Positions 1 to 17,344 of a stretch of DNA of 38,318 nt are shown here, piece after piece. The stretch comes from a virus: positions 1 through 38,318 of IMG/VR virus record IMGVR_UViG_3300034073_003434; one strand, written 5' to 3'. Position 1 is the stretch's first letter. Every line of letters begins with the position of its first letter. The translations under genes and the position numbers were made by a program. The notes below the pieces were generated by a model. The model was not told where the DNA came from. It was given only the letters and a program-made list of their open reading frames with translations, and searched no databases.

Positions 1-52
1 GTTCCACTATGTCCCGTCGCGCGCGCGCGCTGACTGGTAAATGAGGCGCGAT

Positions 53-502
53 ATGGACCGTACCAAGCCAACAACCCGGAAACGGCTCGGAGTAGGGCGA
101 CCATCCGCCGCAATGGAGGCGGCCAAGCCACCGAAACCGACACGGACCTACATCCCCATCGAGGACCCGCCCCCAGCCGACGAAACAGAGGGCCTAACGC
201 CGATCGAGCACCGGCGTTGGTTGCTCGCCGAGACGATGAAAGCGTACGGACGCGCCCGTGACGACCGGTCGCACGTAGCATGCAGGCAGATGCTGCGCGA
301 CGCTGCGACCCTGCGGGACGAGATCGCCGCCATGGAGCGCGCCGATGCCGCCTCCAGCTCCTCGGCGGTGGACGGCCTCACGCCCGACGAATGGTCTGCC
401 GCCCTGCGGGAGCGCGCCGTGACGCTGACCGACGACGACCTCGAGGTGTTCGTCGCCGAGTACCTGTCGCGCAACAAGCACGTGCGCCTGGCGACGGGAT
501 GA
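53..502 (+). CDS. Putative terminase small subunit
   Basis: Predicted 149-residue protein directly upstream of the large terminase, the usual place for the small subunit that recognises packaging-start DNA. The N-terminus is basic and Pro/Lys rich (about residues 1-40), followed by a charged helical middle (about 50-105) and an acidic C-terminal helix. No clear helix-turn-helix is visible, so the assignment rests on position, size and composition. ATG at 53 is preferred because GAGG lies six bases upstream; an in-frame ATG at 41 lacks a ribosome binding site. The stop overlaps the next start (ATGA). It could instead be an unrelated small DNA-binding protein. Confidence 0.55.
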   Translation: MDRTKPTTRKRLGVGRPSAAMEAAKPPKPTRTYIPIEDPPPADETEGLTPIEHRRWLLAETMKAYGRARDDRSHVACRQMLRDAATLRDEIAAMERADAASSSSAVDGLTPDEWSAALRERAVTLTDDDLEVFVAEYLSRNKHVRLATG

Positions 503-1914
503 TCGGTCGTGGCGAGGCGGCCAGGATCCTTGAGGCCGCCGAAGCCCGCCGGCTCGGCGACCCGCTTCGTTCCGTCCGGCTGACCGACCCGCAACAAGCG
601 TTCTTGCAGGACGGCCGCCGCAAGTTGCTATGGCGCGGCGGCAACTCGATCGGCAAGACGTTCGCGCACGTGCTCCACATCCTCCACTTCGCTCGCGGCA
701 CCCACCCGTGGCAAGCAACGCCGCGCGGCCCGAAGCAGCTCATGCTCGCGGGCTACTCGTTCGCGCAGATGGATCCGCTCTGCCGCGCGCTGTGGGCGAT
801 CATCCCGAAAGACGAGATAGATCCAAAGGTAACCTACGCGCCGCGCCAAGGGTTCCGCGGCTACAAAGAGCCGGTGATCCCGTTCATCCGTGGCCCAGGC
901 GCCGGATCCGTGATCGCATTCGCGACGTACAAGCAGGGCGCCGGCCGCATCATGGGCGATCAGTTGCATTACTTCGGCATGGACGAGCCGCCGCCGGAGG
1001 GCGTGTGGGGTGAGGCACAACCGCGCCTCAATCGTCACTCTGGGCAGGCCCGCGTCACGATGACGCCGACCCCGGACAGTCCACCGCTCGGGTACATGCG
1101 CAAGCTGGTAGAGGACGGCAAGCTTACGGAGATGCAGACCAGCCTCACGGTGGAGGCGGTCACGCGCCGCGGCGGCCTGATCGACAGCCCGTGGATGTCG
1201 GCGGAAGACATCGAGGTCGCGCTGTCGAGCTACCTTGACGACGAGCTACCGATGCGACGCGATGGCGCCTGGGACGCGCTCGTTTCCGGCCGGTGGCTGT
1301 CGGCGGTCACCGACGCGATCCTGATCGACGAGATCCCCGACTCCGGGTGGTACGTGGCGGTCGGGGTCGATCACGGCGCCAAGGCCGGCCGGCAGTACGC
1401 CAGCCTCGTGCTGGCCAGCGCCGACGGCGAGCAGGTGATCGTCGCCGACGAAGCGCACGCCGACGGGGTGACCACGACACGCGAGGACGCGCAGGCCCTG
1501 CTCGCAATGCTCCAGCGCAACGGGATCCCGTACCACCAGGTGGACCACTGGCGTGGAGATCGCCGCCATGCCGGCGACTTCTGGGGCAACGAAAAGACGA
1601 ACCGCGAGCTCGCGCGCGAGATCTGCGATGAGCTCGGGATCCGCCAGCGCGACGCCGTGGAGCGGGGCCTGCGGATTCGAACGCCGCGGAAGTACCAGGG
1701 ATCCGTACGTTTCGGGTTTCGCTTGATCAACTCGCTGGCGAAGGCCGGTCGCCTCCAGGTCCACCGTCGGTGCGGGGGCTTCCGGGCTGGCGCGCTCGGG
1801 TGGGTCGGCAGGCCCGAGGATCCGCTGAAAGACCCGCTCGACGCGGCACGATACGCGATCGAAGCTCTACACGACGCGCAGGTCATTCACGCCCGGCGGG
1901 TGGAGGCCGCGTGA
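499..1914 (+). CDS. Terminase large subunit
   Basis: Predicted 471-residue packaging motor: an N-terminal ATPase that pumps DNA into the prohead and a C-terminal RNase H-fold nuclease that cuts concatemers. Visible motifs are Walker A GGNSIGKT (residues 47-54), Walker B HYFGMDEPPP (about 157-166) with its catalytic Glu, a coupling motif VTMTPTPDS (about 186-194), and a first nuclease Asp in VGVDHG (about 289-293). DAARYAIEAL near the C-terminus fits the last acidic nuclease motif. Size is normal for the family. The ATG at 499 overlaps the preceding TGA; longer upstream readings in this frame are out-of-frame shadow of the first gene. Confidence 0.93.
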   Translation: MIGRGEAARILEAAEARRLGDPLRSVRLTDPQQAFLQDGRRKLLWRGGNSIGKTFAHVLHILHFARGTHPWQATPRGPKQLMLAGYSFAQMDPLCRALWAIIPKDEIDPKVTYAPRQGFRGYKEPVIPFIRGPGAGSVIAFATYKQGAGRIMGDQLHYFGMDEPPPEGVWGEAQPRLNRHSGQARVTMTPTPDSPPLGYMRKLVEDGKLTEMQTSLTVEAVTRRGGLIDSPWMSAEDIEVALSSYLDDELPMRRDGAWDALVSGRWLSAVTDAILIDEIPDSGWYVAVGVDHGAKAGRQYASLVLASADGEQVIVADEAHADGVTTTREDAQALLAMLQRNGIPYHQVDHWRGDRRHAGDFWGNEKTNRELAREICDELGIRQRDAVERGLRIRTPRKYQGSVRFGFRLINSLAKAGRLQVHRRCGGFRAGALGWVGRPEDPLKDPLDAARYAIEALHDAQVIHARRVEAA

Positions 1915-1962
1915 TCCCGTGCAACACCACCACGCGATCCCCGTAGGCTGCTCGGAGGCTAC

Positions 1963-2271
1963 ATGCTCGCCCTGACCCTTGTCCTTGCGTGCGCCGCACT
2001 CGACACCGGATCCACGACCCCCGACGGCGCGCCCGTGCGCCTCGTGTACGAGGCCGACCCGGCCCGCGGCTCCATTCCCGGGATCCAGACCGACGGCCCC
2101 TACCAGGTCCTGCATTGCGTCTACGACAGCAGCGGTCCGCTGGCCTGTCGCGACGAGTCCGCGGCTTACATCCTGTGGGATGGCTTGCTCTGTTCTTCCG
2201 GGTTCTCCGGCGTCGGCCAGTGTTCGATCTCGCTCCTGGTTGCGGACGAGGTCCGGATCACGTATTGGTAG
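1963..2271 (+). CDS. Small predicted lipoprotein
   Basis: 102-residue protein with a very short hydrophobic N-terminus ending in LVLAC, a good lipobox with Cys10 as the lipidation site. The mature part has four more cysteines (HCVYD, ACRD, LCSS, QCS), suggesting two disulfides in an exported domain. GGAGG sits six bases before the ATG. It lies between terminase and portal, where no structural gene is expected, so it is probably an inserted cargo gene. Possible roles are superinfection exclusion at the cell surface or an outer-membrane spanin; neither is shown by sequence. The signal has no basic n-region, which lowers certainty about export. Confidence 0.6.
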   Translation: MLALTLVLACAALDTGSTTPDGAPVRLVYEADPARGSIPGIQTDGPYQVLHCVYDSSGPLACRDESAAYILWDGLLCSSGFSGVGQCSISLLVADEVRITYW

Positions 2272-2337
2272 CCTCGCGAGGTCGACCTGATCCACGCCCC
2301 CGAATCGCCGCCCGCCTCGTCGGATCCGCGCACCGTC

Positions 2338-3777
2338 GTGCGCTGGGACGTCGCGCGCCTGCGCCGCCGGCTGCTGTCCGGCGGCTGGCGATCCGATCTT
2401 GACGCCCGCGTGCAGGAGCACTTCGGCCCGACCCGCCGCGCCGTGATGGGGCGCGTGTCGATGGCGCGCAACCCGTTCCGCCGGTTGTGCACGGAGCTCG
2501 CCGTCAACTACGACCGGCCGCCGATGGTCCGACACCCGGCCCGACCGGTCCCGCTGCTGCTGGATCCGGGCGGCGTGCTCGACGCGATGGGCTTGTGGCC
2601 GCTCATGCAGTCGGTACAGTCCGACCTGATCGGCCTACGCGAGATGTGGATGCGCCTCGACTGGTCCGCGGAGCTCGGCCGGCCCGTTGTGCGCGCCGTG
2701 ACCCCCGACTGCATCGAGGCCACCCCGCACCCAGCCGACCCCAACGTGCCGGTCGAGGTCCGCGAGCTGCGGTGGATTCAGGTCCCGAGCATCGGATACC
2801 GGTGGGTCTGGGAGGTCCTGTCGATCGCGGATCCGGCCGCGCCTTCGTGGCGCTTCATCGAGGCCGCCCCGACGGCACCGTCGGACTACACCGCCGCCGT
2901 GCTCGGTCCCGCTGCCGGGTCGTACCCGTGGCGGTGGACCGAGGGCGACCGAGCAGGAACGCCGTTCCTCCCTGGCGTTCTGTACCACGCACGGATGCGC
3001 GGCCGCCTGTTCGACCCAACCGAAGGCGAGGAGGTGGTCGAAGGCACGCTCGACACCGGGGCGTCGTACACCTTCCTGGGCCACGTCATCTACCGTGCCT
3101 CGTGGCCGCGAAACATCGCCGTCGGCCTCGTGCCTGTCGGATCCGTGCCACGCGAAGGCCCCGACGGCCAGGCGCGGGCCGAGGTCGTGTCGGATCCGGT
3201 CGCGGTCAATCACTTTGAGCACATCGAGCCAGGTACACCCGGCACATTCAAGCAACTGCAACCGACCGACCCCGAAGCGTTGGCGCGCACCGTCGCGATG
3301 ATCGAGCGCTCGGTTGCCGACTTCGACGGCCTAGGCCTGTCCGCGCAGGTGACCCAGGCAAGCAGCAACCCGTGGTCGGCGGCGGCCCTCACGATCAGCC
3401 GCGACGACAAGCGGCGCGCCCAGCAGAAGTACACTCCGTCCCTGCGTGTCGCCGACCTCGCGCTCATCGAGCGCATCGCCGCGATCACGAACGGTGCGGC
3501 CGGCCTAACCGCGATCCCGGAGCAGGGGTACCGGATCGACTACGCCAGCGTACCGCTCGCGCGCGACGAAGCCGAGGCGATGCGCGCCCACCATGGCGAG
3601 CTGATCGCCGCTGGGCGGATGTCCACCGTCGACGCGTACCTGATCGAGCACCCCGGATCCACCGAGGAGGAGGCCCGCGCCGCCCTTCGGCGGATCGCCG
3701 CCGACAACGCCGAGTTTCGGGTGACCGCCGGCACGACTCCGGCCCCCGTGGTCACCCTTCCGGCGTCGGCCCCTTGA
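2338..3777 (+). CDS. Portal protein
   Basis: Predicted 479-residue portal, the dodecameric vertex ring through which DNA enters and leaves the head. Support: it directly follows the terminase and precedes scaffold and capsid, and has the family's usual length. It has a basic N-terminal region, a mixed alpha/beta core, the segment SSNPWSAAALTISRDDKRRA (about residues 342-361) and a helical C-terminus, as in SPP1-type portals. The GTG at 2338 has no good ribosome binding site. An in-frame CTG at 2287 with GAGG six bases upstream would add 17 residues and may be the true start. The C-terminus is Pro/Ala rich. Confidence 0.82.
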   Translation: MRWDVARLRRRLLSGGWRSDLDARVQEHFGPTRRAVMGRVSMARNPFRRLCTELAVNYDRPPMVRHPARPVPLLLDPGGVLDAMGLWPLMQSVQSDLIGLREMWMRLDWSAELGRPVVRAVTPDCIEATPHPADPNVPVEVRELRWIQVPSIGYRWVWEVLSIADPAAPSWRFIEAAPTAPSDYTAAVLGPAAGSYPWRWTEGDRAGTPFLPGVLYHARMRGRLFDPTEGEEVVEGTLDTGASYTFLGHVIYRASWPRNIAVGLVPVGSVPREGPDGQARAEVVSDPVAVNHFEHIEPGTPGTFKQLQPTDPEALARTVAMIERSVADFDGLGLSAQVTQASSNPWSAAALTISRDDKRRAQQKYTPSLRVADLALIERIAAITNGAAGLTAIPEQGYRIDYASVPLARDEAEAMRAHHGELIAAGRMSTVDAYLIEHPGSTEEEARAALRRIAADNAEFRVTAGTTPAPVVTLPASAP

Positions 3778-3820
3778 CGCTACCGCCGCAACGGTGCAAT
3801 CTGATCCAGCGAGAGGATCC

Positions 3821-4437
<617 letters not shown>

Positions 4438-4438
<1 letters not shown>

Positions 4439-5364
4439 TGCCCGCTGTCACCACCACGACCCCCGGATCCGATACCCTCGCCACGGCGATCGCGAGCAAG
4501 ACCGCGCTCCTCGTGCTCGGCGACCGCGCTTCGTTGCGTGGTCATCCGGCGCTGATCAACGTCGGGCCGCTGACCGGCCTGGGCGCGCCCGGATCCGGCT
4601 CGCTGTCCGGTACGATGCCGCTGCTCGGCCTCGACGGGATCCAGCGGATGACCGACGCGGCCGAAGCGTCGGGCCTCTCGGAGACCGCGATCAGCTCGGC
4701 CAAGCGCACGGTCACGATCGCCAAGAAGGGCCTCCGCCACGCCTTGTCCGACGAGCTCGCCGCGACGGATCCGACCGGATCCTTCAACGCGGCGCGCCTC
4801 GCGCAGTCCATCGCGATGTCGGCGAGCATGACGTTCACCGAGGAGATCGCGTCGCACGCCGCCGACTTCTCCACGGAGTCCGGCACGTCGGGCGCGGCGT
4901 TCGACCATGACATGTTCATGGCCGCGAAGCAGGCCCTCAACGACGCGGGCGTTCCGGGTCCGTACCTCGCCGTCCTGTACGATCACCACTTCTCGGAGTG
5001 GATGATCGACCTCGAAGGGCGGGGTGGCCTCACCCAGTGGCAGCCGGCCGCCGCCGAGATGCAGGTCCTCAAGGGCCGCGGCTACAAGGGCACCTACGAC
5101 GGCATCGAGATCTACACCTCGTCGCTCATGCCGGCCGACGGATCCAACCGCGTGAGCATGATGTTCGGCGTCGGCGCGATCGGCTACGCCGAGCAGGACC
5201 TCGTGCCGCAGCCCGGCACGATCGTACTGCTCCACGTCGGCCCGCTGCTGGTCGAGGCGATCCGCGGCGACGACGGCACGACCTCCGTGTTGGGTTGGTA
5301 CATGCTCGGCACGATCGAGATCGAGGACGCGCGCGGCACCAAGATCACGGCGCTGGCGGCCTGA
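4438..5364 (+). CDS. Major capsid protein (HK97-like fold)
   Basis: 308 residues, following the scaffold with a one-base overlap. The sequence has features of HK97-fold shell proteins: a helical N-terminal region, a long spine-helix-like stretch around residues 115-165, and a C-terminal half with an E-loop/A-domain-like series of strands ending in GTIEIEDARGTKIT. Size, gene order and the high Gly/Ala/Thr content support the call. The gene carries several GGATCC sites in more than one codon phase, including two within about 18 bases at 4765-4783. It is co-transcribed and probably translationally coupled with the scaffold. Confidence 0.85.
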
Positions 5365-5366
5365 TC

Positions 5367-6023
5367 ATGGCGAAGCCCGCAGCCACTACCAGCGCGCCCG
5401 TCGGCGGATCCGGTCCGCCGCGGGCCAAGCCTGCCGCCTCTGTTCCGGCGGCGGCCGCGGGCGCGCTCGTCCCGATGGATCCGTCGCCCCCGTTCGTGTT
5501 CCTTGCGCACCCCCATTCGTGGGACGTGGCGATGGTCGGCAACGAGGCCCTGCTGGTCCCGTCGCTGCGGGCGTTTCAGTTCCGCGGCGGGCGATCCGGA
5601 GTCATTCCGCTGCGTCGCTCGGCAGTCGGCGACCCCACCGAAGCGCTCGCCTCCCGCGGCCGCCTCGGGTGGATCCAGATCCCGCGCACCACCGGCGGCA
5701 AGGCGTTCGGCGAGGACTTCACCGACTACTGCGTCGGGTACGACGGCACGGCCGGTGACGTGCACATGCCCGTCTGGCAGCGCCCGATCGTGGTCGGCAC
5801 GCGCGTTCTACTCGACTACGACGACGACGGCTGGAACCGGTGGCGCCACGCGCTGATCGGCTCCGTGCTCGATGCCCCCTCGGCGCCGGCCCTCGCGGCG
5901 CTCCGGTCGCGACTGACGTCCGGTCAGCGCCGCCGAGCCAACCGCACCGGATCCGCCAGCGCCAAGGCCGCCGCCGACCTGTTCGGCGCCAAGCTCGCCG
6001 CCCTCACGAAACGCAAGGAGTGA
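5367..6023 (+). CDS. Putative virion structural protein after capsid
   Basis: 218 residues, starting two bases after the capsid stop. The first 45 residues are a flexible Ala/Pro/Gly tail. The middle (about 46-160) is a compact mixed domain with WDVAM, LGWIQIP and LLDYDDDGWNRW. The last 50 residues are a basic helix ending in KRKE. I do not recognise the family. A protein in this slot is often a minor capsid, head-vertex or DNA-binding head protein; the basic tail would suit contact with packaged DNA, which is inference. Translation is probably coupled to capsid synthesis. Confidence 0.6.
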   Translation: MAKPAATTSAPVGGSGPPRAKPAASVPAAAAGALVPMDPSPPFVFLAHPHSWDVAMVGNEALLVPSLRAFQFRGGRSGVIPLRRSAVGDPTEALASRGRLGWIQIPRTTGGKAFGEDFTDYCVGYDGTAGDVHMPVWQRPIVVGTRVLLDYDDDGWNRWRHALIGSVLDAPSAPALAALRSRLTSGQRRRANRTGSASAKAAADLFGAKLAALTKRKE

Positions 6024-6025
6024 CC

Positions 6026-6529
6026 ATGCACAACGTCCTCGCCGTACAGGTTGCCGACGGCACCACCACCCCCGCGGGTACCTCCGAGGTCGTTCTCGGC
6101 TCGCGCACGTTCCCGATCGGTGCCCTGCAGGCCGGCAAGGTGATCAAGTTCGAGGCGCTTGCTCGTACCACAAACAGCAACAGCACCGACACCCTGACCG
6201 TACGCGTCCGCCTCGGCCCGACTACGCTCACCGGCACTCCGATCGTGGAAAGCGCCGCAGTCGACCAGGCCAACAACGATGTGTGCTTGATCGAGGGCAC
6301 CCTGGTCGTGCGCGACGTCGACGGCGCCAGCGTGATCGAGTGCTTCGGCCGCTACAACGACCCCGATGCCGTCGGCACCGCCACCAAGGTGTGGTCGAGC
6401 AAGATCACGTCGCTGGATCTGGATCCGCAGGTCGCCGTGCTCCTGGAGGTCACCGGCCAGTGGTCGGTGTCGCACGCCGACAACGCCGCGGCGCTTGTCG
6501 CGCTCAACGTCTGGGAGAGCGCGGTCTGA
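6026..6529 (+). CDS. Putative capsid decoration or beta-sandwich structural protein
   Basis: 167 residues with a dense alternation of beta-strand-like segments and almost no helix. The sequence reads as a single jelly-roll or beta-sandwich with Thr/Val-rich strands and a conserved-looking FGRYNDPDAVGT turn. The protein begins two bases after the previous stop with AAGGAG upstream. In this position (after the capsid, before connector genes) many siphophages encode a head decoration or stabilising protein. A receptor-binding or tail-spike beta domain cannot be excluded, but tail genes begin later. Confidence 0.5.
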   Translation: MHNVLAVQVADGTTTPAGTSEVVLGSRTFPIGALQAGKVIKFEALARTTNSNSTDTLTVRVRLGPTTLTGTPIVESAAVDQANNDVCLIEGTLVVRDVDGASVIECFGRYNDPDAVGTATKVWSSKITSLDLDPQVAVLLEVTGQWSVSHADNAAALVALNVWESAV

Positions 6530-6549
6530 TCCGCGCTTCGGGGTGACCG

Positions 6550-7311
6550 GTGGCCGCTGCCGACACGATCTACGCAGCCCGGTTCTCCGGCCCAGAAACA
6601 CTCGTAAAGGGCCGGGCAAACCTCGTCACGTGCCCTCTGTACCGAGACGGCGCCGTCGTCGCCCCCGCGTCGTCGGGCTCGACGCTGACCGTGCTGCGCC
6701 CCGACGGGACCGCGCTCGTCGACGCACAGGCCGTCACCGTCACCGGATCCGTCGCGCAGTACTCTATCGGATCCTCGGTGCTTGCCGCCGAGCCGTATCG
6801 CGAAGGCTACTCGGTCGAGTGGTCGCTCGTCGTCGCCGGTACGACGCACCGGTTCCGCCGGTCGGGCGCGGTGTGTCGCAGCCAGCTCTACCCGGTCGTG
6901 ACCGACCTCGACCTGATCCGCCGACACAGCGACCTCGCCAGCCAGCGCCCCGCGTCGCTCGGGAGCTACCAGGCGCAGCTTGATGAGGCGTGGGCGGATC
7001 TGACGGACGACCTCCGCTTGCAGGGCAACCTCCCGCACCGGATCCTGTCGTCCGAGGACCTGCGGCGCGTCCACATGTTCCGGGCGTTGGTCATTATCTT
7101 TCGAGACTTCCGGGTCGGCGGCCAAGAGGCCAAGTGGGCCGACCTGCAAGCCGAATACGAGGACCTGGCCCGCAAGGCGTTTGACGGTCTGTCCGTGGTC
7201 TACGACCGCGACGAAGACGGCACCGGCGGCGAGGTCCGCCGCCCCGCACACGCCACCACGTTCTTTGCGGAGTCGACGACCCCGCCGCTGCGGTCCCCAT
7301 GGGGACGGTAG
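6550..7311 (+). CDS. Putative head-tail connector protein
   Basis: 253 residues from a GTG preceded by GGGGTGA. The N-terminal 100 residues look like an immunoglobulin-like beta domain (TVLRPDGTALVDA, YSVEWSLVVAGTTHRF). The C-terminal 140 are mainly helical, with HSDLASQRPASLGSYQAQLD and LRRVHMFRALVIIFRDFR, resembling adaptor/completion proteins that plug onto the portal. Its place between head proteins and the tail terminator supports a connector role. The C-terminus overlaps the next gene by 13 bases in another frame. The family is not recognised with certainty. Confidence 0.5.
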   Translation: MAAADTIYAARFSGPETLVKGRANLVTCPLYRDGAVVAPASSGSTLTVLRPDGTALVDAQAVTVTGSVAQYSIGSSVLAAEPYREGYSVEWSLVVAGTTHRFRRSGAVCRSQLYPVVTDLDLIRRHSDLASQRPASLGSYQAQLDEAWADLTDDLRLQGNLPHRILSSEDLRRVHMFRALVIIFRDFRVGGQEAKWADLQAEYEDLARKAFDGLSVVYDRDEDGTGGEVRRPAHATTFFAESTTPPLRSPWGR

Positions 7312-7739
7312 CCGCCAGCGCGATCCGTCAAGCGGTCGCCGCCAAGATCACGGCGTTGGGCGCTCCCTATCAGGAGCTGGCCCGCGCCTATGACCTCGTG
7401 CAAGCCGAGCCCGCTTCCGTGCTGCATGGCGGCTTCGCGGTCGGCCTTCCGGCGGCGGCCGACCTCCAGGACCGCCAGCGCTCCGGCGTCGGCGCGCTCA
7501 CGCTGACCCGAATGGTGGTCGTGCTGTTCTGGCGCGCCACCCCCAAGGACCAGATCGTTGCGTACGACGCCGCGCTCGACGCCGCGTCCGCCGTGCGCGT
7601 GGCGGTGTGCGCCGTGTCCCCGTCGTCCCCCGGCGACTGCTCGATCCGGTGGAAGGCCCAAGACGTCCGGGTTACGCCGGATCCCATGTGGTACGAGATC
7701 CGACTGGCGTTCGACGTCCAGCACGTCGCGCCAAACTAA
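7299..7739 (+). CDS. Putative tail terminator/completion protein
   Basis: 146 residues directly upstream of the tail tube gene, the standard site of the tail terminator that caps the tube and joins it to the head. The mixed alpha/beta pattern fits the family: an N-terminal helix (ASAIRQAVAAKI), strands around TRMVVVLFWRATPKDQIVAYD, and a final strand WYEIRLAFDVQHV that resembles the strand ending many terminator proteins. Starting at ATG 7299, it overlaps the upstream gene by 13 bases, suggesting coupling. Confidence 0.55.
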   Translation: MGTVAASAIRQAVAAKITALGAPYQELARAYDLVQAEPASVLHGGFAVGLPAAADLQDRQRSGVGALTLTRMVVVLFWRATPKDQIVAYDAALDAASAVRVAVCAVSPSSPGDCSIRWKAQDVRVTPDPMWYEIRLAFDVQHVAPN

Positions 7740-7748
7740 GGAGGGTGT

Positions 7749-8261
7749 ATGTCCGTTTCCGCCAACCCGCTCGTTCCAAAGGACGGGTCGATCGTCATCA
7801 CCGACGCGACCGGCACCCCGCTGTCGCTGACGATTCTGTACGAGGACGGCGACCTGCAGGTGCAGGGCCTGATGTCCGACCAGATGCGCAAGGAGGAGTT
7901 CAAGACCCGCGGCATTCCGTACGCGGTTCGCGAAGTCGAGCGCATGTCCATCCCGTTCACGTTCACCTGTCACGCCACCGGCATCATCGGCGATGGATCC
8001 ACCGCCCTGCCCGGCGACGCACTGCTGAAGCTCGGGGCGTGGGCGTCGGCAACCAGCAAGGCGAGCGCCGCCCAGGGCGGGGCGTACCTGCTCCAACTCG
8101 CGTGGACCGGCGAGCGGAGCAACTTCGGCGCGACCGCCGACAGCTCGATCACGCTGAAGTATTGCTCGTTCGAGGTCGACTTTGCCGAAGGCATCCCCGG
8201 CAAACTGTCGATCAAGGGCACTGCGCACGCGCTCTCCACCGACTACCTGACGATCGCGTGA
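7749..8261 (+). CDS. Major tail tube protein
   Basis: 170 residues with an excellent ribosome binding site (AAGGAGGG before the ATG), as expected for an abundant structural protein. The strands SIVITDATGTPLSLTILYED, SIPFTFTCHATGI and AYLLQLAWTGE fit the beta-barrel fold of tail tube proteins, and ITLKYCSFEVDFAEG reads as a late strand pair. It lies between the tail terminator and the tail chaperone, the canonical siphophage order. The protein would polymerise as stacked hexamers around the tape measure. Confidence 0.75.
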   Translation: MSVSANPLVPKDGSIVITDATGTPLSLTILYEDGDLQVQGLMSDQMRKEEFKTRGIPYAVREVERMSIPFTFTCHATGIIGDGSTALPGDALLKLGAWASATSKASAAQGGAYLLQLAWTGERSNFGATADSSITLKYCSFEVDFAEGIPGKLSIKGTAHALSTDYLTIA

Positions 8262-8265
8262 TCCG

Positions 8266-8688
8266 ATGAGCACCCCGACGCCACCGCCCACGATCAGCCT
8301 CGACGTCCCCGGCGTCGGCCCGTCGCACGCCGTGATCCTGCCCAACTTCGCAGCGCGCGACGACTGCGCGACCGCGTGGGCCCCCGCGTTCGACGCGGGC
8401 GGGGTGCGCCTGCTCCGCGTCCAGGCCGCGGCGATCGCGCTCGGTACGCGGATCCAGCGCCACGCCCCCGCGAAGTACGGCCCCGACTACGACCTGATGC
8501 GGTACGGCGGCGACGTCTACTCGTGGCTGATCGGCCTCGGCGTGTCGCGCACGGCCATCGCGGAGGCCGGCAACCGGATCCTGCCGCTGATGGTCGAGCA
8601 CCTGTCTCCGCGTGAGCCCGAGGTCGCAGAGGCCGCCGGCCCTTTGGGGGCAGGCGGGGCGCCCTCGACCGGTGGGCGATCCGACTAG
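8266..8688 (+). CDS. Tail assembly chaperone, short form (G-like)
   Basis: 140 residues between the tail tube and tape measure genes. Siphophages encode here a chaperone that coats the tape measure, made as a short form and as a -1 frameshift fusion. The body (about residues 25-115) is helical with an R-x-A-A-A-I-A-L core; the C-terminus after residue 125 is Gly/Pro rich and looks unselected, as expected for the termination tail. The putative slip site T TTG GGG lies at 8643-8649, in codons 127 and 128. Confidence 0.75.
   Translation: MSTPTPPPTISLDVPGVGPSHAVILPNFAARDDCATAWAPAFDAGGVRLLRVQAAAIALGTRIQRHAPAKYGPDYDLMRYGGDVYSWLIGLGVSRTAIAEAGNRILPLMVEHLSPREPEVAEAAGPLGAGGAPSTGGRSD
8643..8649 (+). 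promoter_or_regulatory. Putative -1 ribosomal slip site (TTTGGGG)
   Basis: The heptamer T TTG GGG fits the X XXY YYZ rule in the frame of the upstream gene (codons TTG GGG). Both tRNAs can re-pair after a one-base backward step. The -1 frame continues for 69 codons including the stop. GC-rich sequence downstream (GGGGCGCCC around 8655) could form a stimulatory structure, but I cannot fold it. Confidence 0.65.
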
Positions 8689-8855
8689 GGTTGACGGTCG
8701 CGCAAGACCCGATGTGGTACTACGGGCTCGACAGGGAGCGGCAGATCATGATCCTAGCACTCTACCGCGCCGAGTCCGGGCAGACCCCGAAGCCGCCGCC
8801 CGACCTGCGCGAGCTCGCCAAGGCCGCCGCGGCCGCCCGTGGGGGTAGCCTGTGA
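8649..8855 (+). CDS. Tail assembly chaperone frameshift extension (T-like)
   Basis: The -1 frame is open from 8616 to the TGA at 8853-8855. Reading after a -1 slip at T TTG GGG (8643-8649), about 68 residues are added, including RWAIRLGLTV and MWYYGLDRERQIMILALYRA, a well-formed protein sequence typical of the T part of G-T chaperones. It has no ATG or GTG start of its own with a good ribosome binding site near the frame opening (a TTG at 8691 is possible). The predicted fusion is about 196 residues. Frame, position and slippery heptamer all agree with lambda G/GT-type recoding; actual frameshifting is inferred. Confidence 0.72.
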   Translation, partial: GRRGALDRWAIRLGLTVAQDPMWYYGLDRERQIMILALYRAESGQTPKPPPDLRELAKAAAAARGGSL

Positions 8856-9391
8856 GCGTCACCCGCTACCGCGCCGGCGACGTCACGATCGAGGTCAGCG
8901 GCACGATCGCCGACCTGTACCGACGCGCCGCCGACGCCGCCAGCCGGGGCCTCGTGAGCCGCCTGGAGGCGATCGCGTCCGACGTGGCGACCGACGCCGA
9001 GCGCCAGTGGTACGGCCTCGTCACGCGCCGCACGGGCCGCTCCGGCGACATCGACGTCACCGTGACGATCTCCGAGTCCGAGGTACGGGTCAGCGTCGGA
9101 TCCACCGACACGCGCCGCGCGGGCGGCAAGCCCGTACCGCTCTACGTGCGCCAGCCCCGTTCCACCGCGCTGCTCGATGTCGAGGTCGGCAACGAGGAGT
9201 GGGGTCGCCGCAAGCGCGCAGGGATGCCTGTCGGGCGCATGGGGATCGCGTACGAGCCCAACCCGAAAGCCGCACAGGGAACGCCCAAGTTCCTCGTTCC
9301 GCACTTGATCTCCGGCCCCATGAAAGCGCGCGTCAGGGCGGCGCTACCCGAGCTCAAGCGCGCAATCCTCACGGAGGTGGCCCGTGGCTGA
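8852..9391 (+). CDS. Putative minor tail protein (HK97 gp10-like?)
   Basis: 179 residues from a GTG that overlaps the chaperone stop (GTGA). The N-terminal half is a beta strand then helix (ADLYRRAADAASRGLVSRLEAI), followed by TRRTGRSGDIDVTVTIS and EVRVSVGST. This helix, TGR-S-G turn and paired strands recall HK97 gp10-family neck/tail-completion proteins, but those usually lie before the tail tube. The location between chaperone and tape measure is unusual. The last helix (MKARVRAALPELKRAI) overlaps the tape measure start. Function is uncertain. Confidence 0.5.
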   Translation: MSVTRYRAGDVTIEVSGTIADLYRRAADAASRGLVSRLEAIASDVATDAERQWYGLVTRRTGRSGDIDVTVTISESEVRVSVGSTDTRRAGGKPVPLYVRQPRSTALLDVEVGNEEWGRRKRAGMPVGRMGIAYEPNPKAAQGTPKFLVPHLISGPMKARVRAALPELKRAILTEVARG

Positions 9392-11339
9392 AACGATCGG
9401 CCTCGACGTCGTGGCGCGCCTCGACAAGTTCCGCGAGGAAATGGCGAAGATCCCCGGCATTACGGGTGTCGAGGCCAAGGCCATGGCCGGCCAACTGTCG
9501 CGGGAGATCAAGGCCGCCGAGCGCGCGGCCAAGGGCGCCGCATCCGGATCCGCTGCCTCGTGGAAGGCCGGACTGGGCGACATCAAGGCCGGCGCCGAGA
9601 AGGTGTTCGGCGGGATTGTCGGCGACGTAGCGGACGTCGGCAAGGGGATCGCAGCGCTCGGCCCCGTAGCCGGCGCCGCCGCCGCCTCGATGCTGCTGAT
9701 CGGCGGGGCTGCCGCGGGCGCAAGCGCAGCGATCGGCGCCGCGGTGTCGAGCATCCGCGACTTCGCGGCGACGGAGGCCGCGCTTGCAGAGCTCGGCGCA
9801 ACGTCCGCCGTCACCGCCACGCAACTCGCGTCGATCTCCGAGGCCCAGACGTCCATCGACTCGCTCACGGCGGCGGCCATGCAAGCCAAGCAGGCGTTCG
9901 CCGCCGCGTCCGCCGATGGGGTCGGCGACTTGCTTGGGACCCTCAACGCCTTCGTCCCGCAAGTCTTAGCAGCCGGCGAGACGGTCGGCCGTCTCACCGG
10001 CAGCCTTAGCCGAGGTGTATCGGTCGCTATCGCGTTCGCGGAGGTCATGATCGAGGCCGGCAACCAATCGAACATGTTCCACGATGTCGTGTCGTTCGGC
10101 ATCGTGCCACTGCTCAACATGGTCGACGCGCTCGACGAGGTGTTGCCGCGCGCAGTCGCGAACACGAAGGCCGGCCGCGATCTTGCCGCGGCAAACACCG
10201 ATCTTGCCAAGTCTGCGGAGGACGTCGAGGCCGCGCTGGAACAGGAGCGCCAGCAACTGATCGCGCTGGGTCTGCTTGTCGACGTCGAGGCCGAAAACGA
10301 CGAACAGGCAAGGGCCGCGAAGGAAGCCAAGGCCGAAGCGGCACGCCGCGCCGCCGACGCCGCCCGCGAGGAGGCTGCGCAGCTCGCCGCCCTGGACCGG
10401 ATCCAGGCCATGGCGACCGCGAGCACCATCGCGGCGGCGGATCCGATGCACCGGATCACGCTGCAGCTCGTGGAGCAGATTGCCCAGATCGATGCCCTTA
10501 CGGCGACGGCCGGGGGTGGCGCAGAGGCGATCGAGCAGGCGGAGCTCGCCAAGGCCACCGCCGTGGACGCGTCCACCTCGGCGATGGCCGATGCCCTCGC
10601 GACGCAGGCGGAGGCGTCTAATCGGGCGCTGGAGGCCTCGCGCCGCGCGGGCGAGCAGATGACCGCGCAGGCACAGCGCGACGCCGCCACGCTACGCGCC
10701 GCGTGGCAGGACACGGGCGCCACGGTGGCCGGCTCGTTCGGCGCGCTCGTCTCGCTCGCCGGGCAGTCGAGCGCCGACGCCGCCGCCAGCGCCCTGGCCG
10801 CCCTCGAGGCCACCGGCACGGCCACGGAAGCAGAGCTGCAGGCGGCGCGCGACGCAGCCATGACCCGCGCCAAGATGGCGAAAGCGGCCGGGATTCTGGA
10901 GGTCACGGTCAACACCGCCGCCGCGATCACGAAGGCCGCCGCAAGCGCGCCGCCCCCGCTGAACATCCCCGGCATCGTGGCAATGTCGGCGTTGGGTGCG
11001 GTACAACTCGCGACCGCCGCCGCGGCGCCCCTGCCCACGTTTCACGCGGGCGGCATGATCGGCGCCAGCGGATCCAGCGCGCCCGACGAGGTGGCAATCC
11101 GCGCGCGCCGCAACGAGGCCGTCTTGACGGCTGCAGGCGTGCGCGCGGTCGGCGGCGAAGCAGGTGTCAACGCCGCGAACCGCGGTGAGCCGTCCGGCGG
11201 ATCTGGCGCCGCCGTGTCGCTGATGCTCCGGCATCGCGTGATGGATCAAGTCGCGGCCGAAGCCTACACCCGGCGCGGAGCGTTGCACCGGGCTATCGCT
11301 GGCGGGGACCGGGTCGGCCGGTCCACCCGGAGGCGCTGA
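9384..11339 (+). CDS. Tape measure protein
   Basis: 651 residues, very Ala rich and largely helical, lying after the tail chaperone. A hydrophobic segment around residues 92-126 (LGPVAGAAAASMLLIGGAAA) is typical of tape measure proteins, which span the membrane on injection. The middle (about 270-500) is a long coiled coil with AKEAKAEAARRAADAAREEA. A second hydrophobic, Ala-rich part precedes the C-terminus. At about 1.5 angstroms per residue the tail would be near 100 nm. No lysozyme or peptidase domain is visible. It ends in TGATG overlap with the next gene. Confidence 0.88.
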   Translation: MAETIGLDVVARLDKFREEMAKIPGITGVEAKAMAGQLSREIKAAERAAKGAASGSAASWKAGLGDIKAGAEKVFGGIVGDVADVGKGIAALGPVAGAAAASMLLIGGAAAGASAAIGAAVSSIRDFAATEAALAELGATSAVTATQLASISEAQTSIDSLTAAAMQAKQAFAAASADGVGDLLGTLNAFVPQVLAAGETVGRLTGSLSRGVSVAIAFAEVMIEAGNQSNMFHDVVSFGIVPLLNMVDALDEVLPRAVANTKAGRDLAAANTDLAKSAEDVEAALEQERQQLIALGLLVDVEAENDEQARAAKEAKAEAARRAADAAREEAAQLAALDRIQAMATASTIAAADPMHRITLQLVEQIAQIDALTATAGGGAEAIEQAELAKATAVDASTSAMADALATQAEASNRALEASRRAGEQMTAQAQRDAATLRAAWQDTGATVAGSFGALVSLAGQSSADAAASALAALEATGTATEAELQAARDAAMTRAKMAKAAGILEVTVNTAAAITKAAASAPPPLNIPGIVAMSALGAVQLATAAAAPLPTFHAGGMIGASGSSAPDEVAIRARRNEAVLTAAGVRAVGGEAGVNAANRGEPSGGSGAAVSLMLRHRVMDQVAAEAYTRRGALHRAIAGGDRVGRSTRRR

Positions 11340-14300
11340 TGGCGTCCGACCAATCGCGAGCGGTATACCGGGCCTTGCTGGCCAACGACGCTGGCGTAGC
11401 CCTGTGGGACGCCGAGACAACGCTCGTGCAGACGTCGCCCCGCCCCGGCGTGCCGGACCCGGATCAGGTGACCGGCCTGACGCTGACCAGCTCCGGCGAG
11501 CAAGCCGAGGGCACCCACCTCCGGATCCTGACGCTTCGTGGTGGCCTGCCGGAAATCGACGGAGCCACGTTCGTTTGGCGCAACAGCACCGACGATACCG
11601 ACGAATACCGGGGCTGGGAGCCACCCGGCACGATCAGCGGGTACGAGGCCGTCCGCGTCGCGCCGTCCGGCACGCTCGTGTCGACGGCCAGGCCTCACGC
11701 GATCTCGCTCGCTGACGGCACTGTCGTCACCGCGTACCAGACCGACGACAGCGGCCGCGCGCCCGCCGACGACGGCATCGAGGTGTCGGTGCGGTCGCCG
11801 ACCGCCGACACGTGGTCGACGGTCACGGTCTACTCGACGTCGTTTGCGTTGCCGACGTCGCAGGCGTTCCACCCGTGCTTGCTTCGCTTGCCGAGTGGGC
11901 GGCTGCATCTTTATCATTGGGTGTTCGATCCGGTGACCGCCACCACCGGGCTCGGCAACGTGCGCATGTGGTACAGTGACGACGACGGCGCGACGTGGGC
12001 GCTCGGTCAGTCGTACTGCCTCGCCGACGACGTAGCCTACGCCAGCACCACCGGCGCCGGCCTCGGTGGCTACATCCTCGGTCGCCTCCGGTGCGCGTAC
12101 GCCAACGGGCAGGTCCTGCTCGTGGCCCACCTGCAGGCCCGTGACACCGATCTGGACTACCTCGACACGCTGGCGCAGTGGCACAGCACCGATGACGGAG
12201 TCAGCTTCAAACTCGTCAACGGGGCGTGGTCGACCGACGACGTAGCCGATTCGGGCGGGATGCTCCCCGAGGTGCTCGCCGCCGGATCCGGCTTCGTCGT
12301 GCTCTACCTGACCGCGATCGACCGCAAGCCGCGCGCGCGGGTCGTGTCGTCCGCATCGTACGATCTGGAGGTAGCGACCGCCTACGACGTCGCATCTGCG
12401 ACGGAGGCGTGGGCCACGGTCGCCGGCAAGGTGCTCGTGCTCGGCGACCTCGGGGCTTGCGTCGATGAGACGGGGGCGATCTTCGCGTTCGGCCGGCAAC
12501 CGACCGTCACGGGTGAGGGGATCCTGGTCCGCTCCACCGACGGCGGGGTGACCTGGTCCGGCGTCGGCCAGGGCTCGTCCACTGCCGGGCTCACCACGTG
12601 GTGGGCGGCGAACGACGTAGCGACCTACCCGACCGCGTTCAGCGCCTGCCCCAGCCAGGGGCGAATCGTGATGGTCGGCACGTTCACCGCCGACCCCGGC
12701 ACGGCAGATCCGTCGCTGGTCGCGATCTACCTCGGGGGCTACTCGACGCACACCCTACCAGGGTACACCCGGTTCGCCCGGCAAGACGAGCGCGTGTCCT
12801 GGGAACGCACGTGGCTTCCATTCGACGAGCCCGGCGACACGTACTGGACGGCGGCCGGCGCCGGATCCGATGCGCTCGGGAGTGGCGCGCTGACGGTCAC
12901 GACGACGATCGCGCAGACGCGGTCCTACACGCGAGCCCCGACCAGCAGCGTAGACCACGGCATCATCGCCGAATACTCGGTCGAGGTGACGTCCGGCGGG
13001 TCCTTGTCGACGAATCAGGTTGCATGCCTCGTGCGCGTCGACGACGGCACGGAGGGGTGGGTCGTCGTGATTCGGCATACGGCCACCGGCTTCCGAGTTG
13101 CCGACGCCACCGCGGCAACCACGATCGCCACCGTGACGCTTTCCGGGCGCGTCGACATCCGTGTTGCGCTCGGCAAGGACGCCGACGGCAACGGCGCCGT
13201 GCGCGTGTGGTACCGCGACGCGGACGCGACGCACCCCGCCGATCGGTTCTGGATCCTGGGTGCGTCGTCGGACGCGCTCACCGACAACGCGGGCGCAGCT
13301 GGCGCCAACGCGATCACGTGGGGCCACCTCACGGCGTCGGCCAGCACCTCCGTATGGCATCGCTTCCTTGACGTGAGCGACATCTACGCGGGCAAGACGC
13401 GGCTTTGTTCCGGGCAAACCAACCCGGACGACCTGGGCGCCCGCGAGTTCTCGCCGCGCGGCACCTACGTAGACGGTGGCCTCATCCTCTCGGCGACGGA
13501 CGGGCCGACTGTGCGCGGTGACCTGTGGTCTGTCGAGGCGTCCGACGACTACCCGCTGGCCCGGATCCTGCCGCACAACGGGCAACCGAGCCCGCGCGTG
13601 CTCGCTCGCTGGGACTCGGCGACGCAGGCCGACGTCGCGGTTCGGTGGTCCGAGATCGGCGACGCCTCCGTCGGGTGCGACACGATCGCGATTGGCCTGT
13701 TCGGATCCACCATCGGCCGCGTCGAGATCGCCGGGTACGACGCCGACACGTCCGCATGGGTCACGCTTGCCGCCGTCAACCTGTACGACGGCCTGGAGGC
13801 GTTGCCGTACGTGCGCGACGGCAACGTCGTTCGGCCATCCACGACCGCTCCCGCCGATTCGCCCACGCTCGTACGAGAGGAGGTTCGCGGAGCGTACGCT
13901 TGGACCTACTCGGCCGGTCATTACGCCTGGGAGATCCAGGCAAACACGGAGGGCAAGTGGACCAACGCCACGACGCGCCGGCCCGTGCTCCGCGTCGACG
14001 CCGCGTCCATCGATCCGACGTCGGGCACCCTGCACATCATCCCGCGCGACGTCGTGATCGTGCTGCATCTCGCCGGCGTGGTGTACTCTGGGATCCGGCT
14101 GCGGGTCCCGGTCCCAAGCTCCACGATCCCGCGTCCACCCGGCGGGATCCACGAGCTTGGCAGTCTTGTCGTCGGGCCGGTCGTGCTCATGCCGGAGGAC
14201 TACTCGTGGGGCCGCGTCGTCGAGACCGACACCGCTACCGAGATCATCGAGCAGGCGGACGGCACGTCGACGTCGCGCGTTCGAGCGGTCCCCCGCCGGC

Positions 14301-14665
14301 TGGTCGAGGTCGGATGGGTCGACGGGATCGAGACGAGCGCCGCCGTGGATCCGGGCGGTGAGGCCGATCCTGACTACCTCCTGGCGTCGGCCGCTTCGGG
14401 TGCCCTCGCCGCCGCGCTCGTCGGCACCACCCCGACCGTGCTCGACGGGATCCACCGCGCGCAGTCCGGCGCCGCGGGCCACGTCGTCTACCTCCCGCGG
14501 CTCGTGAAGGGCGGGGCGTCCGACGTGGCGGTCTTGCTGAATCGCCGGGGCCAGCACCTCTATGGGCGGCTGGAGGGGCCGGTGCGCGTCGAAAACGTGC
14601 TCGGCGAAGAGCTCGATACAGAGCTCGTGCGCGTCGCCACCCTGACGATCCGGGAGGAGGTGTGA
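11339..14665 (+). CDS. Large tail tip/fibre protein with sialidase-type Asp boxes
   Basis: 1108 residues, the largest protein of the window. The first 450 residues look like a beta-propeller: Asp-box motifs occur as SDDDGATW (about 213-220), STDDGVSF (about 283-290) and STDGGVTW (about 399-406), with the S-x-D-x-G-x-T/S-W/F pattern of BNR/sialidase-type propellers. The next 250 residues read as a concanavalin-like beta domain, and the rest as Ig-like or jelly-roll domains. It sits after the tape measure in the distal tail slot. It may bind or cleave surface glycans; catalytic residues of sialidases are not identified, so binding alone is equally possible. Confidence 0.65.
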   Translation: MASDQSRAVYRALLANDAGVALWDAETTLVQTSPRPGVPDPDQVTGLTLTSSGEQAEGTHLRILTLRGGLPEIDGATFVWRNSTDDTDEYRGWEPPGTISGYEAVRVAPSGTLVSTARPHAISLADGTVVTAYQTDDSGRAPADDGIEVSVRSPTADTWSTVTVYSTSFALPTSQAFHPCLLRLPSGRLHLYHWVFDPVTATTGLGNVRMWYSDDDGATWALGQSYCLADDVAYASTTGAGLGGYILGRLRCAYANGQVLLVAHLQARDTDLDYLDTLAQWHSTDDGVSFKLVNGAWSTDDVADSGGMLPEVLAAGSGFVVLYLTAIDRKPRARVVSSASYDLEVATAYDVASATEAWATVAGKVLVLGDLGACVDETGAIFAFGRQPTVTGEGILVRSTDGGVTWSGVGQGSSTAGLTTWWAANDVATYPTAFSACPSQGRIVMVGTFTADPGTADPSLVAIYLGGYSTHTLPGYTRFARQDERVSWERTWLPFDEPGDTYWTAAGAGSDALGSGALTVTTTIAQTRSYTRAPTSSVDHGIIAEYSVEVTSGGSLSTNQVACLVRVDDGTEGWVVVIRHTATGFRVADATAATTIATVTLSGRVDIRVALGKDADGNGAVRVWYRDADATHPADRFWILGASSDALTDNAGAAGANAITWGHLTASASTSVWHRFLDVSDIYAGKTRLCSGQTNPDDLGAREFSPRGTYVDGGLILSATDGPTVRGDLWSVEASDDYPLARILPHNGQPSPRVLARWDSATQADVAVRWSEIGDASVGCDTIAIGLFGSTIGRVEIAGYDADTSAWVTLAAVNLYDGLEALPYVRDGNVVRPSTTAPADSPTLVREEVRGAYAWTYSAGHYAWEIQANTEGKWTNATTRRPVLRVDAASIDPTSGTLHIIPRDVVIVLHLAGVVYSGIRLRVPVPSSTIPRPPGGIHELGSLVVGPVVLMPEDYSWGRVVETDTATEIIEQADGTSTSRVRAVPRRLVEVGWVDGIETSAAVDPGGEADPDYLLASAASGALAAALVGTTPTVLDGIHRAQSGAAGHVVYLPRLVKGGASDVAVLLNRRGQHLYGRLEGPVRVENVLGEELDTELVRVATLTIREEV

Positions 14666-16323
14666 GGCTTCGACCCGAACCCGGCGAACAACTGGTGTGG
14701 CTGCTGGATGTGACCTTCGCTGGCCGGATCTGGCGGTTTGCGTCGGAAACGATGGAGGTCGCCGACGGATCCAGCACGCGCACCTACCTGGCCGGCCTCG
14801 CCGGCCTTCGCGTGCGACTCGAAGCGGAGCCGCTGTCGACGTCGCCATCGCCGCCAACCGCGCAGATCGAGGTCGTCTGGCCGGAGTCGGTCGCCTCGCT
14901 GATCGCGCTCGGTCACGACCTGTCGGCCGCGACCGCCGAACTGGCGATGCACCGCGTAGGCACCGATCGCACGTGGCGTGAGGTCGTGATCGCGGGCCGC
15001 GTAGTCGAGCCCGACTACGACGAGATCCTGAACCCCGAAGGATCCAGGCATTCGCTCGTGACCTTCACGGTCGAATGGGCACCCTGGGACGACCGCGCGA
15101 CTCACCCAGCGCCTTCGGCGGCGGTCTCGGCTGACACGTGGCCCGACCGCCTGCCCGATCACGACGGCCGCGTCTACCCGACCGTGTGGGGCCGTCCCGG
15201 ATCGTACCGCGAAGCCGACGGAACGGCGATCGTGGCGCCCGGATCGCCGGCCTTGATCGTCGACTACTCGTCGGTCGGCGAGATCGCGACGAAGCTCCTG
15301 ATCGCCGGCCACCGGGTGGCCTCGGCGAACGTCACCCTCCTGTACCGCGACGACGCTGTGATGGGCGGCTGGTCCACCGAGGTGGTTGATGTCACGCACG
15401 AGACGGACGGCCTCGGCCAACTGTGCGCCGTCGTTGATATCTCGGCGGAGGCCCTAGCGATCCAGCAGGCCGGCGACTACTGGATCAGCTGGAACCAGAA
15501 CAGCGGCGCGCTGCTGTCCGACATCGACGGCGCCGAACTGTCCACGATGGGGCACCTGATCGAGTGGTGGCTCGGCCGGTCAGTCGACCGCATCGACCGC
15601 GCGCGCCTTGCCGCGGTGCGGCCGATGCTCGATCGCTGGAAGGTGGCCGGGTACGCCGACGAAGCCGTGTCGCCTTGGGACTACGTGGCTGACAACCTGC
15701 TGCCGCTCTTACCCGTGTCCGTCGCCGTGGGGCCGGCCGGCCTGTACCTCGTGCCCTGGCGGTGGGATTCGACGGCGACCGTGGCCACGATCACGGAGGG
15801 GCCGGGCGTCGCTCACGTCGGGCCCGTGCAGTACCAGGCGCCACCATGGGAGCGCTGCAACCGGCGGACGATCCGCTGGGCGCTGGACGCGGCGTCGAAC
15901 GAGTACCTCCGCCGAACCACGCTCGGGCCGTCGCCGGACCCAGACGACCCCGACGCGATCGGCTCCCTCGTGGTCGAGCAGTCGGCGTCCCGGCTCGGCG
16001 TGCTCGATGGCGAGGACCTGACCACCGACACCCTCCCCGACCGCGACGGCGCTGCGCTGACCCTGCTCTGGCGCGCGGCCCGTGACGCAGCCTCCCGGCG
16101 CCGGGTCGTGTTCGACTGCCCGCCCGCCTACGCCTGGATCCGGCCAGGCGACGTCGTGCACCTCGTGTCGACGCACCTTCTGATCGACGCGGCCGCCGAC
16201 GTGATCGCGGTCGAGCTCGACGACCACTGCCGGGTACGACTGGAGATTGAGATCCGCCCCGCCCCGCCGACCACGGGTAGCATCGTGCCGCTCGGCGACG
16301 ACGACATCGTGCTGCCGCAGTAG
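14662..16323 (+). CDS. Putative distal tail/tail tip hub protein
   Basis: 553 residues, GTG start overlapping the previous stop (GTGA). The first 170 residues (LLDVTFAGRIWRFASETMEV, then YLAGLAGLRVRLEA and YDEILNPEGSRHSLVTFTVEW) resemble distal-tail or hub N-terminal beta domains. The remainder is mixed, with PWDYVADNLLPLLPVSVAVG and LYLVPWRWDS, and a region after residue 470 that resembles hub domains in which coordinates are read from DVVHLVSTHLLID. It ends the late operon; its stop codon directly abuts the stop of the convergent gene. Family not certain, tail tip by position. Confidence 0.55.
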   Translation: MRLRPEPGEQLVWLLDVTFAGRIWRFASETMEVADGSSTRTYLAGLAGLRVRLEAEPLSTSPSPPTAQIEVVWPESVASLIALGHDLSAATAELAMHRVGTDRTWREVVIAGRVVEPDYDEILNPEGSRHSLVTFTVEWAPWDDRATHPAPSAAVSADTWPDRLPDHDGRVYPTVWGRPGSYREADGTAIVAPGSPALIVDYSSVGEIATKLLIAGHRVASANVTLLYRDDAVMGGWSTEVVDVTHETDGLGQLCAVVDISAEALAIQQAGDYWISWNQNSGALLSDIDGAELSTMGHLIEWWLGRSVDRIDRARLAAVRPMLDRWKVAGYADEAVSPWDYVADNLLPLLPVSVAVGPAGLYLVPWRWDSTATVATITEGPGVAHVGPVQYQAPPWERCNRRTIRWALDAASNEYLRRTTLGPSPDPDDPDAIGSLVVEQSASRLGVLDGEDLTTDTLPDRDGAALTLLWRAARDAASRRRVVFDCPPAYAWIRPGDVVHLVSTHLLIDAAADVIAVELDDHCRVRLEIEIRPAPPTTGSIVPLGDDDIVLPQ

Positions 16324-16728: not shown

Positions 16729-16741
16729 CACTCCTCCAAAC

Positions 16742-16758
16742 GGCCGGGACAACCGGCC
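16742..16758. repeat. Small inverted repeat (GGCCGG/CCGGCC) between minus-strand genes
   Basis: GGCCGG, a five-base loop GACAA, and CCGGCC form a six-base-pair hairpin in the 106-base gap between two minus-strand genes. A second small hairpin, GCACG-TTT-CGTGC, lies at about 16778-16790. They could slow transcription or mark a processing site; neither has a T-run. Confidence 0.5.
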
Positions 16759-16829
16759 TAGTTACTTCGCCCCTACGCACGTTTCGTGCCCCCGCACCGT
16801 ACGGAGGCACGCCGAATCGAGCCAGATCG

Positions 16830-17050: not shown

Positions 17051-17116
17051 GTGCCCTCCTACGCCGTCAACCCCGCCGGCATGACCCGAGCGGGGCGAGG
17101 GCGTGAGCCCGTGGGG

Positions 17117-17314: not shown

Positions 17315-17344
17315 CGTCTCTCCCCCGGCGGCCGGTCATCGCCG

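What the first reader, a model, noticed from the sequence alone, without database searches (positions are those of the whole stretch)
1..16323. Strong enrichment of GGATCC in the morphogenesis half
By eye I count about 55 GGATCC in the first 16.3 kb (one per about 300 bases) against about 15 in the remaining 22 kb; base composition alone predicts about 13 in the whole window. The word occurs in all three codon phases (GGA TCC as Gly-Ser, xGG ATC Cxx as for example Trp-Ile-Gln, xxG GAT CCx as Asp-Pro). It also uses otherwise rare codons GGA and GAT. Phages usually lose palindromic restriction-type sites, so retention suggests a DNA-level use: methylation target, recognition by a phage or host protein, recombination or packaging marks, or origin of this half in a host with such words.
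Basis: partly seen in the sequence, partly recalled or inferred. Interest (0 to 1): 0.85.

Follow-up and report, generated by a model that had tools for sequence, protein, structure and literature searches.

The report
GGATCC hyperabundant in phage and bacteria
The six-letter palindrome GGATCC is four to five times more common than the genetic code explains across the core genes of this phage, its copies are preserved as DNA, and the same rare state turned up in the chromosomes of certain actinobacteria (Microbacterium and kin), so some unknown system that reads GGATCC probably acts on both.

Summary
In detail: 56 GGATCC in 1-16323 and 15 in the rest. Against synonymous-codon shuffles the left-half genes hold 50 sites where 11 are expected, the largest excess of all 4096 hexamers, in all three codon phases. 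Relatives at 92-94% identity keep 44 of 50 sites where codon-specific decay predicts 28; sequence beside the sites shows no such excess. The word is therefore maintained at the DNA level. It is not one clean half: dense at 1-17.3 kb, about host level at 25.2-31 kb, nearly absent from the accessory zones between and after. The same hexamer, excess, phase pattern and C-rich flanks occur genome-wide in a discrete class of Microbacteriaceae chromosomes (1400-2350 sites per Mb; other members mostly under 700), where sites are also conserved (99 of 131 against 51). Unrelated B3 mycobacteriophages show it too (published, unexplained). Best reading: a highly iterated palindrome of the HIP1 type, outside cyanobacteria, shared by phage core genes and, probably, their host. 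What reads GGATCC is unknown: three DNA-methyltransferase families do not track the high class, and the phage's Dam-like gene is missing at its place in an equally enriched relative. Host identity is inferred from composition only.

The parts
1..17300 (.). Core zone dense in GGATCC: 57 sites, 3295/Mb (packaging, head and tail genes plus start of the next operon)
   Evidence: 92% identical in relatives L059-L061 up to about 16.9 kb
17301..25200 (.). Accessory zone without any GGATCC (small ORFs plus a Toprim protein); diverged or rearranged in relatives
25201..31000 (.). Second zone with GGATCC at about host level: 11 sites, 1897/Mb (Erf-like annealing protein, RusA-like resolvase, XRE-type regulator, small MTase)
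31001..38318 (.). Accessory/replication zone poor in GGATCC (3 sites)
499..1914 (+). Terminase large subunit
   Evidence: phrog_2, E 2e-10; distant tblastn matches to Arthrobacter phage terminases, best E 3e-9
2338..3777 (+). Probable portal (by position only)
   Evidence: no family match
4438..5364 (+). Major capsid protein
   Evidence: PF25209, E 1.3e-6
9384..11339 (+). Tape-measure protein
   Evidence: phrog_5448, E 4e-4, weak
4767..4782 (.). Closest pair of sites, GGATCCGACCGGATCC
30420..31034 (+). Small putative DNA MTase with NPPF motif (204 aa); target unknown
   Evidence: phrog_799 E 2e-8; PADLOC MTase_II E 7e-6
32309..33049 (-). Dam/D12-class adenine MTase with DPPY motif; target unknown; missing at the matching place in relative L003/L059
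   Evidence: PADLOC MTase_II PDLC03340 E 1e-34, dam TIGR00571 E 0.007 below cut-off; synteny
35179..37188 (+). Primase/helicase with DUF927
   Evidence: phrog_8841 E 9e-46; PF06048 E 2e-22

Best explanation
GGATCC in this phage is a highly iterated palindrome: a word kept at 2000-3000 copies per Mb by a process that acts on DNA, not on protein or codon choice. The phage's long-resident core modules carry the word because they evolve inside a host lineage whose whole chromosome is in the same state, most likely an actinobacterium of the Microbacteriaceae. Recently exchanged accessory zones have not yet gained it. Shown: the excess, its DNA level, its conservation in phage and bacteria, the discrete high class of chromosomes. 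Inferred: that the host is of this class, that the accessory zones are younger, and that one GGATCC-recognising protein (a modification, repair or chromosome-handling enzyme) maintains the sites by selection or by biased repair.
For: Codon-shuffle excess 50 vs 11.3. Sites intact in relatives 44/50 vs 27.9+-3.5, rank 1 of 82 hexamers, same in the reverse direction and with L002 and L005; flanks at +-9 to 30 nt show z between -1.7 and 1.5. Microbacterium sorbitolivorans, two further Microbacterium genomes and MAG SZAS-7: 1905-2346/Mb. Within the genus 7 of 119 genomes at 1615-2346/Mb, none between about 505 and 1600; family 6 of 200 at or above 1400; phylum sample of 396: only the two Microbacterium genomes G012 and G093 above about 900. 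High genomes: codon-shuffle O/E 3-5, same phase pattern and C-rich flank as the window; low genomes mostly about 1. Host sites intact 99/131 vs 50.6 (z 9.2) while most other palindromes stay near 0; intergenic 30 vs 5.0. Halves of the window differ in tetranucleotide signature (r 0.715) a little more than halves of comparison genomes (0.75-0.90).
Against: No relative of the phage was found in 400 Microbacteriaceae or by pattern in the bacterial collection. With GGATCC masked, the tetranucleotide signature points only to actinobacteria in general. B3 mycobacteriophages have the same state although no Actinomycetota genome sampled outside Microbacteriaceae was seen to. Three Microbacterium phages lack it: 0, 0 and 6 sites in 30 kb. 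Phyla other than Actinomycetota were not surveyed.
Confidence: 0.55

Rival explanations
1. Phage-encoded use: the phage's own protein (for example one of its two orphan MTases, or a packaging or nucleoid protein) reads GGATCC, so the phage selects for sites regardless of host.
For: Two putative MTases in the window. B3 mycobacteriophages show the state while other cluster B phages grown on the same laboratory host do not (PMC4841201).
Against: Relative L003/L059 is equally enriched but lacks the D12 MTase at its syntenic place; phages with D12 homologues lack a comparable excess (7/8.1, 4/3.6, 7/2.9, 3/1.9). Two zones of the same phage lack sites. No shared protein with B3 phage Athena.
Confidence: 0.2
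2. Mutational or repair drive without any benefit: a site-directed repair or modification system in the host makes or spares GGATCC (as Elhai proposed for HIP1 through methylation-guided mismatch repair), and the phage inherits the bias passively.
For: The excess lies in all phases and between genes, in phage and chromosome alike; zones with few sites coincide with accessory DNA.
Against: Not separable from selection here. MTase families PF01555, PF00145 and PF02086 do not track the high class.
Confidence: 0.25
3. Release from restriction: most palindromes are avoided and GGATCC merely is not.
For: CCCGGG and GGGCCC are strongly avoided in the window, and B3 phages avoid many palindromes.
Against: The excess is 4-5 fold over codon shuffle rather than about 1, and sites are conserved beyond codon expectation. 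GGCGCC is not avoided in the window.
Confidence: 0.03
4. Chance, codon usage or repeated peptides.
For: GATC-containing words are common in GC-rich genomes.
Against: Codon-shuffle null, all phases, noncoding sites, conservation and flank control.
Confidence: 0.01

Closest known systems
HIP1 and derivative highly iterated palindromes of cyanobacteria (GCGATCGC; GGGATCCC in Synechococcus OS types A and B), PMC4390886
   Same: Palindrome, about 1000-2000 copies per Mb, GATC core, sporadic among relatives, sites resist deviation.
   Different: Hexamer GGATCC with C-rich flanks; here in actinobacteria and a phage; no associated MTase found in three families; the GGGATCCC context is rare in the window.
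GGATCC over-representation in subcluster B3 mycobacteriophages, PMC4841201
   Same: Same hexamer, same codon-shuffle excess (64 vs 17.1 and 57 vs 15.4) and phase pattern; unexplained there too.
   Different: Genome-wide in B3, zonal here; no detectable shared proteins.
BamHI-type restriction-modification (GGATCC)
   Same: Same word.
   Different: Restriction normally removes sites; here sites are abundant and kept. No BamHI-type enzyme was identified or searched for directly.

Membership tests
Highly iterated palindrome (HIP1 type) | Palindrome at 1000-2000 per Mb or more | tested here: met
   Window 1853/Mb overall, 3295/Mb at 1-17.3 kb; high bacteria 1400-2350/Mb
Highly iterated palindrome (HIP1 type) | Excess over codon-aware expectation | tested here: met
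Highly iterated palindrome (HIP1 type) | Bias against deviation at the sites between relatives | tested here: met
Highly iterated palindrome (HIP1 type) | Associated orphan DNA methyltransferases for the internal word | tested here: inconclusive
   PF01555 core copy in high and low genomes alike, PF00145 and PF02086 only in some of each; PF02384 and other MTase families not tested; methylation not measured
Highly iterated palindrome (HIP1 type) | Cyanobacterial genome | tested here: not met
   The carriers found are Microbacteriaceae; so 'works like', not a member of HIP1 itself
Dam-guided GATC methylation | Dam/D12 MTase present wherever the word is enriched | tested here: not met
   Absent from most high bacteria and from the syntenic place in L003/L059; phages with D12 homologues not comparably enriched
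BamHI-type restriction-modification | GGATCC-specific endonuclease and MTase | not tested
   No direct search for BamHI homologues was made

The most novel reading that the evidence does not exclude
Some Microbacteriaceae carry an unrecognised GGATCC-reading system, not based on the common MTase families, gained or lost several times. It keeps thousands of GGATCC sites in the chromosome under selection, and phages that live in such hosts must carry and keep the sites too, for example as self marks that spare DNA from a nuclease.
Probability: 0.3. Interest if true: 0.88.

Novelty: new variant of a known kind. Interest (0 to 1): 0.72.

Why it matters
Highly iterated palindromes have been an open puzzle in cyanobacteria since the 1990s, without a proven function. 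A second, independent case in culturable actinobacteria, with close relatives in the 'on' and 'off' state and a phage that shares it, makes the question directly testable: compare on and off sister genomes, read base modifications, and measure how GGATCC-rich and GGATCC-poor DNA fares in each. It also offers a route to explain the published B3 mycobacteriophage anomaly and a compositional clue to the hosts of uncultured phages.

Tried and rejected
Phage D12 MTase as the cause (rejected). m5C, D12 and N6/N4 MTase families as the bacterial correlate. Specificity change in the shared core MTase: the high genomes form three clades in its tree and one column separates high from low, too little to claim. 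The PAPS-reductase-like protein of B3 phages as shared factor: no match in 36 genomes or records, without a positive control. Szabonella alba as a high genome: its local cluster is an (Asp-Pro-Thr)n repeat. Host through protein relatives: none in phage records at useful identity, none in bacterial contigs or 400 Microbacteriaceae. Depletion of GGCTCC and similar words is largely the mirror of GGATCC gain among synonymous codon pairs and was not used as separate evidence. CGATCG also looked conserved before codon correction; after it z is 2.1 in the phage and about 0 or below in bacteria.

Full report
Observation. The window is the whole of one virus record of 38,318 bases, GC 0.71. GGATCC occurs 56 times in 1-16323 and 15 times in the rest. 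Base composition predicts 12.8 in the whole window, and Markov models of order 1 to 3 give at most 36 in any run for the left half. Permuting synonymous codons within each gene, which keeps proteins and codon usage, predicts 11.3 +- 2.7 in the left-half genes; 50 are there. Of all 4096 hexamers GGATCC has the highest excess, and the next ones overlap it. It is in excess in all three phases, most of all as GGA TCC (22 vs 1.25). Between genes of the left half there are 6 sites in 862 bases. My gene calls are from codon statistics, not from an annotation.

Where it lies. The split at 16323 is not exact. Sites per Mb are 3295 at 1-17.3 kb, 0 at 17.3-25.2 kb, 1897 at 25.2-31 kb and 410 at 31-38.3 kb. 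The dense zone holds terminase, capsid and tail genes; the second zone holds an Erf-like annealing protein, a RusA-like resolvase and a small MTase. The poor zones are mostly small unnamed genes that diverge in relatives. Relatives share the pattern: L061 has few sites in its first 4 kb, L059 few in its first 6 kb, and all are dense in the head and tail genes.

Conservation. Seven related IMG/VR contigs (four or five haplotypes) are 92-93% identical to the window over the core. I estimated for each codon how often its positions stay unchanged between window and relative, leaving out codons in the sites, and predicted how many sites should survive. Against L060, 44 of 50 survive where 27.9 +- 3.5 are expected, first of 82 tested hexamers; the same holds in the reverse direction and against L002 and L005. 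Hexamers 9 to 30 bases away, in the same genes, show no excess. So the word itself is kept.

Not the phage's Dam-like gene. The window has two putative orphan MTases, at 30420-31034 and 32309-33049. The second is Dam/D12 class. In L003/L059 the flanking sequence is joined without it, though that contig is just as rich in GGATCC; a copy elsewhere in the missing part of that genome is not excluded. Other phages with homologues lack a comparable excess.

A published parallel. Siranosian et al. 2015 (PMC4841201) reported GGATCC more than fourfold over-represented genome-wide in subcluster B3 mycobacteriophages and left it unexplained. With the codon null I find 64 vs 17.1 in Athena and 57 vs 15.4 in Philly, the same phase pattern, and no excess in the cluster B phages Laurie and Vista or in Gordonia phage Ligma. 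Athena and the window share no convincing protein.

Bacteria with the same state. Whole-genome counts are 1905-2346 per Mb in three Microbacterium genomes and in the MAG SZAS-7, against 140-680 in the other actinobacteria tested. Within the genus group, 7 of 119 genomes lie at 1615-2346 per Mb and none between about 505 and 1600. In the family, 6 of 200 lie at 1400 or more, with two near 900. In 396 genomes drawn from the phylum, only the two Microbacterium genomes G012 and G093 exceed about 900. Samples from high genomes show the window's hallmark: codon-shuffle ratio about 3-5, strongest in GGA TCC, C-rich flank; low genomes are mostly near 1. In 120-kb regions of three related high genomes, 99 of 131 sites are intact where 50.6 are expected; most other palindromes stay near expectation, GGCGCC and GCCGGC falling below it and TCGCGA rising above it in one comparison. 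Intergenic sequence has 30 where 5.0 are expected. In a tree of the shared core MTase the high genomes fall into three clades, so the state was gained or lost more than once.

Mechanism. What follows is inference. The word is kept by something that acts on double-stranded DNA. HIP1 of cyanobacteria is the nearest known case (PMC4390886): similar density, GATC core, sporadic presence, resistance of sites to change, and two orphan MTases. Here MTases of PF01555 are in all genomes tested, high and low, and PF00145 and PF02086 occur in some of each, so I could not name a reader; other MTase families, nucleases and repair proteins were not tested. Selection and biased repair cannot be separated with these data. 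The phage most likely carries the word because its core genes have long lived in a high-class host; the poor zones fit recent exchange. The host itself is not proven: no relative was found in Microbacteriaceae genomes, and with GGATCC masked the signature says only actinobacterial.

Verdict. The best name is an HIP-like palindrome in actinobacteria and a phage: a new variant of a known kind, with an unknown reader. I found no paper that reports GGATCC hyperabundance in Microbacterium in the library searched; that library lacks most subscription journals.

Noticed in passing
window 1-38318: CCCGGG and GGGCCC are strongly avoided in both halves (0 vs 13.6 and 2 vs 12.5 for CCCGGG), so both halves share some restriction history.
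   Followed up: partly
L016-L019, L047, L014: Phage contigs with GATC almost or wholly missing (1-8 vs 14-39 expected in L016-L019; 0 vs 61 in L047; 0 vs 41 in L014); all but L014 carry homologues of the window's Dam-class MTase.
   Followed up: no
L053:1-2717 (Athena) against L055:789-4246 (Laurie): B3 mycobacteriophages carry ParB-like and PAPS-reductase-like genes before the terminase, where the related phage Laurie carries 7-deazaguanine (DNA modification) genes; a different DNA modification is likely.
   Followed up: partly
L056, L055: TGGCCA is enriched over codon shuffle in mycobacteriophages Vista (41 vs 13.5) and Laurie (60 vs 31); perhaps another iterated palindrome.
   Followed up: no
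window 35179-37188 and L003:1931-3961: The DUF927 primase/helicase is on the + strand in the window and on the - strand in its relative, an inversion in the replication zone.
   Followed up: no
window 11339-14665: The 1108-aa tail protein has weak BNR/Asp-box (sialidase-type repeat) matches, possibly a glycan-binding tail part.
   Followed up: no
window 1-16323: CGTGCT is the most enriched hexamer not overlapping GGATCC (22 vs 6.6).
   Followed up: no
window 33246-33809: A SLOG-family (YspA-like, PF10686) nucleotide-binding protein next to the Dam-class MTase gene; a relative lacks both at this place.
   Followed up: no
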